Positions 13,492 to 42,939 of a stretch of 64,000 bases of DNA are shown piece by piece. The stretch covers positions 1,780,118-1,844,117 of the forward strand of contig NZ_SJPU01000001.1 in NCBI RefSeq assembly GCF_007860105.1, in the 5' to 3' direction. Source of the stretch: Allorhodopirellula heiligendammensis. Lineage in GTDB: Bacteria; Planctomycetota; Planctomycetia; Pirellulales; Pirellulaceae. The position numbers were made by a program, and so were the translations under genes. The notes under the pieces were generated by a model, which saw only the letters and a program-made list of their open reading frames with translations, ran no database searches and had not been told where the DNA came from. Position 1 is the first letter of the stretch. Each line of letters opens with the position of its first letter.

Positions 13492-15210
13492 ATGAGCACC
13501 GCCGCCGATCCGAAGTCCGCACCTGCTACAGACACCGACGTTCTCAACAAATACAGCCGCCATATCACGCAGCCCAAGAGCCAAGGCGCCTCGCAAGCAA
13601 TGCTGTACGCGACCGGCATGACCTCGGAGGACATGAACAAGCCCCAGGTCGGCATTGGCAGTATGTGGTACGAGGGCAACAGCTGTAATATGCACCTGCT
13701 CGACCTGGCTGCGGAAGTTCGCAAGGGCGTTGTCGATGCTGGCATGGTCGGCATGCGATTCAACACGATCGGCGTCAGCGACGGGATCTCGATGGGCACC
13801 CGCGGGATGAGCTATTCGCTGCAGAGCCGCGACCTGATCGCCGATTCCATCGAAACGATCATGGGGGCCCAGTGGTATGATGCGCTGATCGCCCTGCCGG
13901 GCTGCGACAAAAATATGCCCGGTTGCTTGATCGCGATGGCGCGGCTCAACCGACCTGCGATCATGGTCTACGGCGGCACGATCAAACCGGGCAGCTACAA
14001 GAACGAGAAACTCGATATCGTCAGTGCGTTCCAGTGCTACGGACAATACCTCGCGGGCCAGATCAGCGAAGAGGAACGATCCGAAATTGTGCATCGCAGC
14101 TGCCCGGGCGCTGGAGCATGCGGTGGCATGTACACCGCCAACACGATGGCCACCGCGATCGAAGCACTCGGCATGTCGCTGCCGTATTCGGCCAGCATCC
14201 CGGCAGAAGACGAGGAGAAGACAGACGAATGTCACCGCGCCGGGGCGGCGATTTTGAATCTGCTCAAGCTGGACCTCAAGCCTCGCGACATCATGACCCG
14301 CGAAGCATTCGAGGATGCCATGGTGACGCTGATGGCCCTCGGCGGCAGCACCAACGCGGTGCTGCACCTGATCGCGATGGCCCGCGCCGTCGACGTGCCG
14401 CTGACCATCGACGATTTCCAATCTGTCAGCGACCGGACACCCTTCCTCGCGGACCTCAAACCGAGTGGCAAGTTCGTCCAGGAAGATTTGCACAGCATCG
14501 GTGGCACCCCCGCCGTGATGAAGTACCTGCTCGAAAAGGGCATGATCCGGGGCGGACACATGACCGTCACCGGCAAAACGCTCGCCGAAAATCTCCAGGA
14601 TGTACCGTCACTGAAATCGGGGCAGAAAATCGTTTCGATGATCGAATCGCCGATCAAAAAGAGCGGTCACATTCGGATCCTTCGCGGCAGCTTGGCACCC
14701 GAGGGTGCCGTGGCGAAAATCACCGGCAAGGAAGGCCTGCAGTTCTCAGGGCCAGCCCGTGTCTACGACAGCGAAGAAGACATGCTGGCGGCACTGGAAC
14801 GCAAGGAAATCCAAAAGGGCGACGTCGTGGTGATCCGGTACGAAGGACCCAAGGGCGGTCCTGGCATGCCGGAGATGCTGACACCAACGAGTGCCATTGT
14901 CGGAGCGGGGTTGGCCAGTGATGTGGCGTTGCTGACCGATGGACGGTTCAGTGGCGGTAGTCACGGCTTCATCGTCGGACACATCACCCCCGAAGCTCAA
15001 GTGGGCGGACCCATCGGGCTGATCCAAGATGGAGATACCATCACCATCGACGCCGAAACGAACTCTCTCGATGTCGACGTTGACAGCGCCGAAATGGATC
15101 GCCGCCGCGATGCCTGGACCGCCCCTCCCCTGAAGGCTACGCGGGGTACGCTGTACAAATACATCAAGAGCGTCAAGAGTGCCTCCGAAGGCTGTGTCAC
15201 CGACGAGTGA
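13492..15210 (+). CDS. ilvD: Dihydroxy-acid dehydratase
   Basis: 572 residues. It catalyses dehydration of 2,3-dihydroxy-isovalerate and 2,3-dihydroxy-3-methylvalerate in valine and isoleucine synthesis, in the cytoplasm. Iron-sulfur ligands are in GCDKNMPGC and [16 protein letters not shown], both at the expected positions. Further family motifs are [17 protein letters not shown] and [18 protein letters not shown] near the C-terminus. The length is typical. The DUF1080 gene runs divergently just upstream, and a GNAT gene follows 38 bp downstream. leuC and leuD are 31 kb away and not in the same operon. Confidence 0.98.
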
Positions 15211-15248
15211 GTGATAGTTGACAGACGATTGACCCACCGGAAATCGCG

Positions 15249-15692
15249 ATGAAATTCATTGAAATCGAATGGTGCTCGCCTGAGTATCAGTCGGCGTTGG
15301 AACTCCGCCACGAGGTGCTACGAGCACCTCTGGGGTTGAAGTTGACCGCTGAAGAACTCGACGGAGAGCACGGGCAATTGCACTTTGGCGTCGCCGAAGG
15401 TGATGAACTCATCGCGACACTCGTCGCCCGGCCCCATTCGACGAACCTAGTCCAACTGCGACAGATAGCGGTCCACCCGAACCGCCAATCCAGTGGCGTG
15501 GGCCGGTTTTTGATGGAGTACTGCGAGGCGAACCTGCGGGAGCGAGGGTTTCAGGAAATCACACTCAACGCACGACTCATCACCCTACCGTTTTATGAGA
15601 AACTGGGTTACGAAGCCGTCGGTGACGTCTTCAAAGAGATCACGCTCGAACATCAAAAAATGGTCAAGCAGATCGGTGGTGAATCCACGTAG
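15249..15692 (+). CDS. GNAT family N-acetyltransferase
   Basis: 147 residues, a single GNAT domain. The acetyl-CoA loop is QIAVHPNRQSSGVGRFLMEY, which matches the V-x-x-x-x-R/Q-x-x-G-x-G/A signature. Downstream ITLNARLITLPFYEKLGYEAVG is the typical C-terminal strand-helix with the FYEKLGY motif. It resembles ElaA/YjcF-type proteins. It lies 38 bp after ilvD on the same strand and may be co-transcribed. The acceptor substrate is unknown. Confidence 0.88.
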   Translation: MKFIEIEWCSPEYQSALELRHEVLRAPLGLKLTAEELDGEHGQLHFGVAEGDELIATLVARPHSTNLVQLRQIAVHPNRQSSGVGRFLMEYCEANLRERGFQEITLNARLITLPFYEKLGYEAVGDVFKEITLEHQKMVKQIGGEST

Positions 15693-15944
15693 TGGACTGT
15701 CGATTGATCTTTTTTGAAAGTTACGAAGCGACGGCAGCATGTCGACTGGGGCGTCGGCCGTGCGGATTTCCTCGCTTATTTTAGGTAATGAAGTCGTTGG
15801 GGCTCGGGATAAACAATTAACCCTCCGCTCGCTTGGCTATCCACAATGCAGCATGGGAATTTGTCTCGCACGCAGATGAAATCGTGATTGGGTTCGAAGC
15901 CTGCATGACTCAGTCGCACGTTCGTGATGCCACCCGAAAGAAAT

Positions 15945-16268
15945 GGTCCATCCGGGATTATCGTGGGTAGATCCAGCATGTTGGATTTTGGAGGTATGGC
16001 GGTGGCGTCCGAATTGAAGGAGGCCGTAGCAGAAATAACGCTGAAGGCTGGCGCAGACGCCGCCAGCCCAAGGCACCTTTCGGGTCCAGTTCGACCAGGA
16101 TATTGCTTGTAGAATCGCCCTGCGGCTGAGCGTACTTCCACCTCTTCCGCACGTGAAACCTGTTCGGTTGACATCAGCGTGACAAAATTTCGGACGCCAC
16201 CGCTATGCCTTGAGAATCCCCCACACTTGGCTCACCGCGGCGAAACCCACGGTAAACCCGGATGGACC
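15945..16268 (-). mobile_element. Miniature inverted-repeat transposable element, copy 1 (324 bp)
   Basis: The ends are 24-nt terminal inverted repeats, 15945-15968 and 16245-16268, which match at 22 of 24 positions and begin GGTCCATCCGGG. They are flanked by a perfect 8-bp direct duplication AAAGAAAT at 15937-15944 and 16269-16276. A related copy in the opposite orientation lies at 26538-26850. The interior encodes no transposase; the conserved interior peptide frame (SRAEEVEV...) is short. It is therefore a non-autonomous element that would need a transposase supplied in trans. An 8-bp duplication is known from several IS families, and I cannot assign one. Inserted just past the stop of the DUF1559 fragment. 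Confidence 0.85.
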
Positions 16269-16292
16269 AAAGAAATGACGTCTGTTGAATCC

Positions 16293-17300
16293 TCACTCGA
16301 TTCGCTCACCATCATTTCGAATGATCATCTTGTGCAGTTTCGGACGATCGATCGGGCTCATTCTTTCCACGGTAGCATCCGCTTTTAAGATGAAAATCGA
16401 TTCATCGTTGAACGGTTCAACATCGCTATCGGGCAAATCGACCCGTTTGGTGATATCGACAGGCTTGGTCCATGGCACACTTTTCTTCGCTGCAATGATC
16501 AGTGCAGTGGATGAAGTCCCGTCGGTAAAATCAGCCATCGAATGACCAGTGATCCCCAAACCTCCGTCCTCGGTTGCAAACCCGAGATAGTTCGATTCGC
16601 CAGACGCTTGATCGGGCGGCGCCAACGGACAACGGTAGACGTCCGGCATTTTCTCGACCAACGTCAGGTTATGCTCACTGTCCCAAGGTTCATCAAATCG
16701 GTACTGCTCAAATAGGTCGTTATTTTCAAGGAAAGGTAATAGCGCAACTCGCCAACTGAACGGATACGGCGCGTCACCGTTGATGCCTCGTTTTCCTTCA
16801 CGCACGTTCTGACTGCCCGGGATTTTTCGATAGGTAACGTGAAAGTTGTGAAAGGCAACTCCGATTTCACGCAAGGAGATTGCGGTTTGTGCAGATGCAT
16901 CTGCGGAGAGCAGTGACGCAGCCATTTTCTCAGCGGAAAACTCTGGTGTCTCTTTCAGCAAAACGACAAGCGGAAGCCAGCGAGAATCGATTTTGTCGGC
17001 CATCGCCTTTATATCCTTGGGCGATAGGGGAACATTGCCGAGACGATCGAGGACGAAGAGCGGTCTTATTACCACTGGTGCATTTCCCAAACCACTCGAT
17101 TCCGCCTGATTCGGCTTTGCATCAAGTTGGCTTATTTCTTTGGAAGGCAGTATTTTTAGCCGTCCGTCAAACTCGAACGGGACACGCAGAATGAGAGGCT
17201 CCGGATAATGTTGCTGAAAAATAATTTCCTTCGGCAATCGGCTTGAATCGACTGAAAAACGTCCGTACTGCTCCAAAGTCGCCGGATCGCTGAGGTGATA
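16293..17300 (-). pseudogene. DUF1559-domain fragment, 3' part of a broken gene
   Basis: Open for about 335 codons, but without a credible start: it continues in frame directly from a TAA at 17301-17303, and the first candidate start codon is a TTG at 17276. The sequence contains a DUF1559-type module: AISLREIGVAFHNFHVTYRK, then PYPFSWRVALLPFLENNDLF, YRCPLAPPDQASGESNYLGF and ADFTDGTSSTALIIAA. The domain is found at the C-terminus of planctomycete sensor kinases and in pilin-like secreted proteins; the pilin-type N-terminal helix is absent here. I read it as the end of the same ancestral gene as the two upstream segments, cut off by a nonsense codon. The fragment could still be translated from an internal start. 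Confidence 0.65.
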
Positions 17301-17861
17301 TTAGAAGTTTTGATAGAAAATGATCAACGTGTCAGGGTTTGACTTGCCATTCTTCGCAATACCGTCAGCCCAAATTCCTTGCAAACTGGCGGAATCAAGA
17401 TCCATGTCGATACCGATGGGCGATGGATCGGCCTGCGAAAGCGCGGGTTTGAGCTTTTCCACGGCTTCCTGAACCTCCTCTTCGCTAAAGTTTCCCGTGA
17501 TATGCACCGAACGTGTTATTGGGGCCCTAACGTAGGGCGCAAGACGCACGGTCCCATCGACAACGATTGCCAATTGTTGTTGCAAATGGTTGCCTGTCAG
17601 TTCGCCAAATTGCTTTGCCAGTTGGTCGTCGAACTTCAGCTCGATCGCGGGTGCCCCATTCACGTCAACAATCTGCTTGGCCATTGTGACGTGTTCGGAC
17701 AGTTTTTCCCATCCGATCCGTGCGGAGCTTGATGCGATCGCCAAGGCATACCGATTGCCGTTGTAGGAATGAACGATCGGAGCGGCGACGTTCGGCTTGC
17801 GGTCGTGCCGCAGTGGGTCGCTGTGTCTTCGCTTCGGTTGAGCCTGTCGGATCCGTCGTCC
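17301..17861 (-). pseudogene. SecD P1-head-like domain fragment, middle part of a broken gene
   Basis: The frame opens after a TAG at 17862-17864 and closes with TAA at 17301. It shows no start codon with a ribosome binding site. The readable part is NVAAPIVHSYNGNRYALAIA, then IELKFDDQLAKQFGELTGNH and a segment with VVDGTVRLAPYVRAPI and ITGNFSEEEVQEAVEKLKP. This pattern (Glu-Phe-Asp-x(3)-Ala, a GxxA..P stretch, and the I-x-G-x-F-(S/T)-x-E-E motif) is the SecDF P1 head subdomain, known in planctomycetes as an extracytoplasmic module behind kinases. It overlaps the last part of the kinase frame by about 200 bp in a different frame, which indicates a frameshift. Confidence 0.6.
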
Positions 17862-26151: not shown

Positions 26152-26240
26152 CCGGACCAACAGAGTGAATGAGGGACAGGCAAGGGTCAGCTGGCTTTAC
26201 TCGTCACATGCATTGGATTCTCAAGGCGTTCGCAGAATGA

Positions 26241-26537
26241 CGATGTCGCGGATACAATACCGTCCGAGGTCCAGATGTGGCTTTCGTGAATTGGTCACGG
26301 TTGCCGGGAGGACGCGTGCCTGAACGTCCTATCCCCGACCTGGTTCCCAATTTCGTGATTGAAGTGCTCAGCCAGGGCAACACGCGAGGCGAAATGGCCA
26401 GAAAACGTGGGGAGTATTTTCACGCTGGGGTCGAGTTCGTGTGGTTGATTGATCCGCGCAGTCGGAGTGTCGCGGTCTTTAAATCAGCGGACAAATTCAG
26501 GCTCATCCGACTAAAGCGTTCGCAGAAGGCTTTTTAG
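26241..26537 (+). pseudogene. Uma2-family endonuclease fragment
   Basis: Readable from a TGA at 26238-26240, with no start codon at the expected place, to the TAG at 26535-26537. The part VRGPDVAFVNWSRLPGGRVP, then DLVPNFVIEVLSQGNT and KRGEYFHAGVEFVWLIDP, matches the restriction-endonuclease-like Uma2 (DUF820) family, including its PDxxF and EVLS motifs. The N-terminal third and the C-terminus are missing. The stop lies within the target duplication of the adjacent miniature transposon, so insertion probably cut off the 3' end. Uma2 genes are commonly mobile and often decayed. Confidence 0.75.
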
Positions 26538-26850
26538 GGCCCATTCGAATTTATCGTGGGTTTCGCAGCGGTGAGCCAAGTGTGGGGGATTCTTAAGACA
26601 TCGCGGTGGCGTCCGAAATTCTCCAGGCCAATGTCAACCGATCTCGTTTCGCGTGCGGAAGAGGTGCAAGTAAGCTCAGTCGCTGAGCGATTTGCCAAGC
26701 AATATCTTGGTTGCACACGACCCGAAAAGTGTCTTAGGCTGGGACTGCCTTCAGCGTTATTTCTGCTACGCCCTCCCTCGTTTCGGACGCCACCGCCATG
26801 CCTCCCAAATCCAACATGCTGGATCTGCCCACGATAATCCCGGATGGCCC
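26538..26850 (+). mobile_element. Miniature inverted-repeat transposable element, copy 2 (313 bp)
   Basis: Homologous to the element at 15945-16268 but in the opposite orientation. Its terminal inverted repeats, 26538-26561 and 26827-26850, match at 18 of 24 positions, so this copy is older or more diverged. The flanks show a partly decayed 8-bp duplication: CTTTTTAG at 26530-26537 and CTTTTTCT at 26851-26858 agree at six of eight positions. The interior keeps the frame trace SRAEEV and KQY, shared with copy 1. No transposase is encoded. Left end abuts the Uma2 fragment. Confidence 0.8.
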
Positions 26851-42666: not shown

Positions 42667-42752
42667 CCGAGTCGCCTCGGGAACGCGAGCTTTTGCAGCA
42701 GACCGCGCAGTGGAGCTATTGAACGCCGTGGGCCGAGACGCGCGAGCGGCAC

Positions 42753-42820
42753 GGCTAGCGACAATGCCCGGCTAGCGACACTGCCCGGCTAGCGACAATG
42801 CCTGGCTAGCGACAATGCCT
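42753..42820 (+). repeat. Tandem repeat, 4 x 17 bp
   Basis: Four consecutive units of GGCTAGCGACAATGCCC or a one- or two-base variant. It lies 87 bp beyond the sulfatase stop, in the gap before the next, convergent sulfatase. Each unit contains the palindrome GCTAGC. Confidence 0.92.
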
Positions 42821-42939
42821 GGTGCCTGACAGCACTCAATTCATCCTCAGCCCACCGATCGCGATCCGACGGATACACGATTCAACGAGCTGTGCGCGGG
42901 AAGCTCGCACGGAGATGCGTTGAACGACGCATAAAACGC

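What the first reader, a model, noticed from the sequence alone, without database searches (positions are those of the whole stretch)
15937..16276. Miniature transposon with 24-nt terminal inverted repeats and perfect 8-bp target duplication
The ends 15945-15968 and 16245-16268 match at 22 of 24 positions, flanked by AAAGAAAT on both sides. It has no transposase. The clean duplication suggests fairly recent movement.
Basis: seen in the sequence. Interest (0 to 1): 0.6.

Follow-up and report, generated by a model that had tools for sequence, protein, structure and literature searches.

The report
Hitchhiking mini-transposon of ISL3 type
A 324-base stretch of DNA that makes no protein has spread around this planctomycete genome, most likely by borrowing the enzyme of a known kind of jumping gene, and its family shares a middle part with related mini-elements that wear the ends of a different jumping gene.

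Summary
Window 15945-16268 is a 324-bp element with 22/24 matching inverted ends and a perfect 8-bp duplication, AAAGAAAT. It belongs to a family: I merged 27 places in the genome, 17 with both ends, including a second copy in the window at 26538-26850. One copy sits inside another mini-element whose uninterrupted relative shows the empty site. Its ends are those of one ISL3-family IS subgroup: intact 1.3-kb IS with these ends and 8-bp duplications occur in relatives. This genome's own ISL3 transposases are at most 32% identical and have other ends, so the helper enzyme is missing from the assembly. It is a new member of a known kind; an ISL3-type MITE is published for Microcystis. Less ordinary: the family's interior (inner arms plus core) is homologous to mini-elements in sister species that carry ends of a different ISL3 clade; the window copy itself, of a diverged subgroup, shows this only weakly. 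The inner arms changed together yet stayed complementary between families, and 79-bp copies without the interior also appear to have moved. This suggests a cassette with exchangeable ends; its function is unproven.

The parts
15937..15944 (.). left target duplication AAAGAAAT
   Evidence: 8/8 with the right copy
15945..15968 (+). left terminal inverted repeat; with the next bases it matches the transposase-C-terminal-side end of a group-A ISL3 remnant (L084; element bases 1-32, 91% of 34 columns, one 2-bp gap)
15983..16013 (+). left inner arm of a second, nested inverted repeat (31 bp, 84% complementary)
   Evidence: arms covary between families
16014..16188 (+). core between the inner arms; in older copies of this family homologous to the cores of MITE-2 and MITE-3 in sister species, weak in this copy alone (E 0.015, best of 2000 controls 0.17)
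16189..16219 (-). right inner arm
16245..16268 (-). right terminal inverted repeat
16269..16276 (.). right target duplication AAAGAAAT
26538..26850 (-). second copy of the same family (83% identical, 313 bp), flanking octamers 6/8 alike
26500..26519 (+). solo end of the other ISL3 subgroup (GGCTCATCCGACTAAAGCGT), 18 bp before the second copy

Best explanation
It is a non-autonomous miniature transposon (MITE) of ISL3 type. Its ends are recognised in trans by the transposase of one ISL3 subgroup (group A, ends GGTCCATCCGGG...GTGGGT), which inserts it into mostly A/T-rich octamers and duplicates them. Shown by sequence: multiple copies, octamer duplications, an empty site, and near-identity of its ends with those of group-A ISL3 elements in relatives. 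Inferred: that a group-A transposase moved it, and that this helper has since been lost from this strain, or was never resident or not assembled. The interior is not a deleted transposase gene. In the family as a whole it is a shared cassette of inner arms plus a core, also carried by sister families (MITE-2, MITE-3) whose ends belong to the clade of this genome's own ISL3. Nested insertion followed by rearrangement, seen in sister genome G006, is the likely way in which cores and ends were exchanged (inference).
For: Copies: 27 merged places, 17 two-ended. Flanking octamers of those 17: 8/8 in 4, 7/8 in 4, 6/8 in 1, 5/8 or less in 8. Empty site: copy C1:1861697-1862019 lies inside a MITE-2; with it and one octamer removed, the flanks align without a break at the joint to the uninterrupted MITE-2 in L094 (257 of 299). 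Ends: a pattern search of genome contigs (84,980 species genomes) gave 11 stretches; 8 of 11 sit just after the C-terminus of an ISL3 transposase (7 of these from one MAG), 1 is a MITE copy of G006, 2 have neither. Two intact 1298-bp IS in G023 have duplications CTTTTTTT 8/8 and AAATTTTA 8/8. The two group-A transposases tested are ISL3 by PF01610 and NF033550. In the tree the three end types fall in three supported clades. In L085 the element's first 24 bases are followed by what reads, by eye, as the start of a group-A transposase. Interior homology: 8 of 8 MITE-2 interiors hit the MITE-1 profile at E 2e-7 to 1e-5, best of 2000 Markov-shuffled controls 2.3; 4 of 5 MITE-3 interiors and 1 of 1 from G010 at 49-71 bits. 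Exchange: L094, L091 and L096 share one MITE-2-in-MITE-1 junction (190-191 of 200 bases) at three loci, with outer duplications 8/8 in L091 and L096.
Against: No group-A transposase was found in this genome: 8 hits to a group-A query, best 32%. 8 of 17 two-ended copies have flanks matching at 5 of 8 or fewer. MITE-3 copies show no clear duplication (best 6/8, in 1 of 8) and group-A IS L150 has none. The window copy's own core hits neither sister profile convincingly: no same-sense hit with MITE-2, E 0.015 with MITE-3. In the 98 genomes searched, only this genome and G006 hold clear copies; 7 others have short matches, mostly to the ends. The tree program warns that long branches meet between the group-B and group-A rows. 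Movement itself was not observed.
Confidence: 0.88

Rival explanations
1. The element is moved by this genome's own ISL3 transposases (group B, ends GGCTCATCCGAC...), present in five intact copies, by cross-recognition.
For: Group B is the only intact ISL3 found in this genome and both end types begin GG..CATCCG; group B also makes 8-bp duplications (L099 8/8).
Against: Beyond the first 10 bases the ends differ, and end types track three transposase clades. MITE-2, not this element, carries group-B ends (L100 and L209 share the first 24 bases; MITE-3 L223 shares 23).
Confidence: 0.12
2. The core and inner arms are plain neutral filler: MITE-1, MITE-2 and MITE-3 share them only through common descent and recombination, and the arms stay complementary because template switching corrects quasi-palindromes, not because of selection.
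For: 79-bp copies without any core at C1:1595068 and C1:472633 share one junction and have octamers 7/8 and 8/8, so the core seems not needed to move. The window's subgroup has a strongly diverged core. Within MITE-1 alone there is no covariation support (term +0.76). Template-switch correction is a known mutational process (recalled).
Against: 9 of 21 inner-arm pairs changed on both sides across three families while 92.3% of cells stay paired, against 34-39% when the arms are slid by one to three columns.
Confidence: 0.5
3. The inner module is a structured RNA or DNA with its own function (regulatory RNA, protein-binding hairpin), kept under selection and re-packaged with new ends.
For: Covarying inner arms; strong folds, z about -7 to -9 in one copy of each of three families, largely due to the palindromes; a core homologous across three families.
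Against: No Rfam family; no promoter or terminator match around the window copy; few independent events, since the arms changed at only about two family splits; the count of doubly changed pairs is not above shuffles (102 of 500 reach it, 493 of 500); the window copy's core has drifted.
Confidence: 0.22
4. A chance inverted repeat or an ordinary segmental duplication, not a mobile element.
For: None found.
Against: 0 such pairs in 20 shuffles; distinct octamer duplications at different loci and an empty site.
Confidence: 0.01

Closest known systems
187-bp MITE of Microcystis aeruginosa PCC 7806 (PMC11448079; passages read)
   Same: No transposase, several copies, 8-nt direct repeats, ends that match ISL3-family IS; the authors infer ISL3 mobilisation
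   Different: 9-nt ends GGCTCTTCG, cyanobacterium, IS with matching ends in the same genome; no shared-core families with other ends in the passages read
ISL3-family insertion sequences, group-A subgroup (L120, L159, L128, L150)
   Same: The terminal 24-32 bp; A/T-rich 8-bp duplications in L120 and L159
   Different: These IS are about 1.3 kb and encode a 409-aa transposase; the MITE interior matched none of the IS loci compared beyond the ends
TIMEs, Tn3-derived miniature elements (PMC4133298; passages read)
   Same: Non-autonomous, conserved stretches in the core, mosaic elements
   Different: Tn3-type ends; a different transposase family
MITE-2 / MITE-3 of sister species G006 and G002 (found here)
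   Same: Homologous inner arms and core at family level, similar length (300 and 313 bp)
   Different: Outer ends of the other ISL3 clade (GGCTCATCCGAC...)

Membership tests
MITE (non-autonomous miniature inverted-repeat element) | short, terminal inverted repeats, no transposase | tested here: met
   324 bp, 22/24 ends, no Pfam/NCBIfam hit in its ORF
MITE (non-autonomous miniature inverted-repeat element) | multiple dispersed copies | tested here: met
   27 merged places in G000, 17 two-ended
MITE (non-autonomous miniature inverted-repeat element) | target-site duplication / empty site | tested here: met
   8/8 in 4 and 7/8 in 4 of 17 copies, 8 of 17 at 5/8 or less; empty site for the nested copy
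MITE (non-autonomous miniature inverted-repeat element) | ends shared with an autonomous IS | tested here: met
   in relatives; not in the same genome
MITE (non-autonomous miniature inverted-repeat element) | demonstrated mobilisation in trans | not testable with these tools
   needs a bench assay
ISL3-family IS (as the source of the ends) | DDE_Tnp_ISL3 transposase between such ends | tested here: met
   PF01610 and NF033550 over their cut-offs for L128 and L120
ISL3-family IS (as the source of the ends) | 8-bp duplications, ends beginning GG | tested here: met
   L120 and L159 8/8; L150 has no duplication; that 8 bp and GG ends are typical of ISL3 is recalled
ISL3-family IS (the element itself) | encodes an ISL3 transposase | tested here: not met
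   it carries the ends, it is not an IS
Rfam RNA family | match to a curated covariance model | tested here: not met
   0 at gathering score in 15000-17500; one hit at E 3.4, below its gathering score, in 15900-16320

The most novel reading that the evidence does not exclude
The inner arms plus core form a conserved, hairpin-closed cassette that persists independently of its ends and has been re-packaged with the ends of at least two ISL3 transposase clades in one bacterial genus. It would be a modular passenger with a function of its own (structured RNA or DNA) rather than a decayed IS. Odds lowered from 0.25 to 0.22 after one search showed how far the window copy's own core has drifted.
Probability: 0.22. 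Interest if true: 0.6.

Novelty: new member of a known kind. Interest (0 to 1): 0.4.

Why it matters
It identifies the IS family behind a planctomycete repeat family and gives an empty site. It also supplies nested and chimeric copies from which an exchange of ends between MITE families can be read. How MITEs acquire interiors unrelated to their parent IS is, to my knowledge, seldom directly visible; here likely intermediates lie in a sister genome. If the cassette has a function, it would be an overlooked structured element in this genus.

Tried and rejected
Deleted-transposase origin of the interior: rejected. Only the ends match the 10 IS-bearing or end-bearing sequences compared by blastn, and a profile of the interior hit 2 of 32 loci, L083 and L196, which are themselves cassette copies. 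A known RNA family: none. Covariation within MITE-1 alone: none; it appears only between families. Promoters or terminators in or beside the window copy: 0 found. Empty site for the window copy itself: not obtained, since homology of the left flank to relatives stops 276 bp before the element. Plasmids and viral contigs: no match. Other IS families with 8-bp duplications (IS1595, IS66, recalled) were dropped once ISL3 transposases were found next to the same ends. IS110 identity of the insert in the 818-bp copy is by eye only; Pfam gave no hit. The first interior comparison, on one strand only, was negative; on both strands it was positive because the two sets had been put in opposite orientations. 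In the reverse search the MITE-2 profile found 7 of 13 MITE-1 interiors at E 5e-5 or better, 2 more at 0.01-0.05, and none of the 4 of the window's subgroup in the same sense. The MITE-3 profile found 9 of 13 at E 7e-6 or better; the window's subgroup gave E 0.0002 (second window copy), 0.015 (window copy), 0.05 and 1, best control 0.17. L214 (a 204-bp MITE-3) gave no hit. L157 (G083, 49.5% identical, ends GGTCAATCGGGG / GGTCCATCCGGG) yielded no usable 300-residue frame and is not in the tree.

Full report
Observation. Window 15945-16268 is flanked on both sides by AAAGAAAT and has ends matching at 22 of 24 bases. The scan of the window found no other inverted pair of that quality within 1500 bp, apart from the same pair shifted by one base, and 20 shuffles gave none. 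A second, nested inverted repeat of 31 bp lies at 15983-16013 / 16189-16219. The one ORF across it has no family hit.

Family in this genome. The whole-genome search returned 50 matching stretches. Merging by eye those in the stretches I fetched gives 27 places, 17 with both ends; one of the 27 (C2:1194440) rests on an end match only. One search lists at least one further 39-bp fragment (C2:2617454) outside that merge. The two nearest full-length copies differ by 5 and 9 of 324 bases. Flanking octamers of the 17 are 8/8 in 4, 7/8 in 4, 6/8 in 1 and 5/8 or less in 8; the well-preserved ones are mostly A/T-rich. Twelve are 313-325 bp long, one is 404, one 818, two are 79 and one is 67 bp. The two 79-bp copies share the same internal junction and have octamers 7/8 and 8/8 at separate loci, so this interior-less form probably moved as such.

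Relatives. Of 98 genomes searched with the element, 9 had a match at E 0.001; besides this genome only G006 has clear copies, and the other 7 have short matches, mostly to the ends.

Insertion shown. Copy C1:1861697-1862019 lies inside a copy of a second mini-element, MITE-2. When it and one octamer are removed, the flanks align across the joint, without a gap there, to uninterrupted MITE-2 in G006 (L094, 257 of 299 identities), with ATTTATTT / ATATATTT as the duplicated octamer.

Source of the ends. In relatives, ISL3 transposases about 65% or more identical to that of G011 lie next to GGTCCATCCGGG-type ends: both ends found for L128, L120, L159, L150 and L127, one end for L153, L116 and L129. 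Duplications are 8/8 in L120 and L159 but absent in L150. A pattern scan of 84,980 species genomes found 11 stretches; 8 abut an ISL3 C-terminus (7 of these from one MAG, so not independent), 1 is a MITE copy of G006 and 2 are unassigned. The 24-base end in L085 (G031) is identical to the left end of the window element and is followed by what reads, by eye, as a transposase N-terminus remnant. L128 and L120 proteins are ISL3 by Pfam and NCBIfam. In a 21-protein tree the end types GGTCCATCC (5), GGCTCATCC (4) and GGTTCTTC/GGCTCTTCG (6) form three supported groups; six proteins have unassigned ends. The program warns that long branches meet between group B and group A, so how the groups join is unsure.

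Helper missing. This genome has 13 PF01610 matches. Queried with a group-A transposase it gives 8 matches, best 32% identical, and the five intact copies have ends GGCTCATCCGAC. Three contigs begin about 107 bases from such a group-B end, whereas no GGTCCATCCG lies that near a contig start; contig ends were not checked for most contigs. The assembly is 97.6% complete in 35 contigs, so absence is likely but not proven.

The interior. No IS-derived part was found beyond the ends. With 30 bp stripped from each end, 8 of 8 MITE-2 interiors match the MITE-1 profile at E 2e-7 to 1e-5, best of 2000 Markov-shuffled controls 2.3. Of five MITE-3 interiors (G002), four match at 49-56 bits and the 204-bp one does not; the G010 element L083 matches at 71 bits (a tiny database, so bits are safer than its E-values). 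The reverse searches are positive for the older MITE-1 copies but weak for the subgroup that holds the window copy: MITE-2 profile, 7 of 13 at E 5e-5 or better, none of the 4 in that subgroup in the same sense; MITE-3 profile, 9 of 13 at 7e-6 or better, second window copy 0.0002, window copy 0.015, best control 0.17. The link of the window copy to the cassette thus runs through its older MITE-1 relatives in this genome, to which it is 72-80% identical over full length. MITE-2 was found at 18 places in G006 (18 of 236 first-look candidates were scored). MITE-2 ends equal one end of an IS of this genome over 24 bases (L100 and L209). So related cores carry ends of two transposase clades that are far apart. 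Co-divergence of core and transposase seems unlikely; this last step is inference.

How ends may have been exchanged. In G006, L094 holds a complete MITE-2 inside MITE-1 with duplication GCCGAAGT 8/8, and L090 shows that MITE-1 site uninterrupted. L091 and L096 have the same junction (190-191 of 200 bases alike among the three) at other loci, with outer duplications ATTGGTTA and TAAAAAGT, 8/8 each. L096 switches back to MITE-1 sequence at the inner arm, giving MITE-1 ends around a MITE-2 core. L090 itself has one MITE-1 end and one MITE-2 end, with the MITE-2 half inverted relative to the colinear alignment and no matching octamers (octamers compared by eye). Internal rearrangement after insertion could also preserve the outer duplications, so the order of events is not fixed.

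Inner arms. On 27 copies of three families, 9 of 21 arm pairs changed on both sides and 92.3% of cells remain paired; sliding the arms by 1-3 columns gives 34-39% paired, and no shuffle of 500 reaches the observed pairing or covariation score. On two families, 7 of 32 pairs. Against this, the number of pairs with double changes is not above shuffles (102 of 500 and 493 of 500 reach it), all 500 shuffles in both calls have at least as many further pair types as observed, and the changes trace to about two family splits. Within MITE-1 there is no support. Quasi-palindrome correction (recalled) could produce the same pattern without selection.

Literature. Searches 'miniature inverted-repeat transposable' + ISL3 (9 papers), + planctomycetes (7), ISL3 + MITEs (10), Rhodopirellula + MITE (2), Rhodopirellula + inverted repeat + insertion sequence + transposase (2), and an exchange/chimeric query (10) listed no planctomycete ISL3 MITE by title or abstract start. 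Passages read: PMC11448079, PMC4133298, PMC9208149. ISL3-type MITEs are therefore known; that this family is undescribed is claimed only for those searches of that open-access library.

Noticed in passing
window about 26240-26499 and 26500-26519: A reading frame that looks like a Uma2-type endonuclease by eye runs into a solo group-B ISL3 end, 18 bp before the second MITE copy: repeated insertions at one spot.
   Followed up: partly
L062 5434-6251 (G000 C1:1333433-1334250): 818-bp copy of the family with about 440 bp inserted at a palindrome; the insert reads like an IS110 transposase remnant by eye, no Pfam hit.
   Followed up: partly
L109 1274-1626 (G000 C2:558529-558881): 353-bp deleted derivative of this genome's own ISL3 with both ends: another kind of ISL3 mini-element.
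   Followed up: no
G002, e.g. L223 1501-1813: MITE-3, 313 bp, at least a dozen places with group-B-like ends but without clear 8-bp duplications; one locus has the same flanks in G009.
   Followed up: partly
window 42749-42833: Tandem array of a 17-bp unit (GCCCGGCTAGCGACAAT).
   Followed up: no
L181 4778 and L185 2987: Exact group-A ends in a Mariniblastus MAG and a deltaproteobacterial MAG without a transposase match in the stretch held.
   Followed up: no
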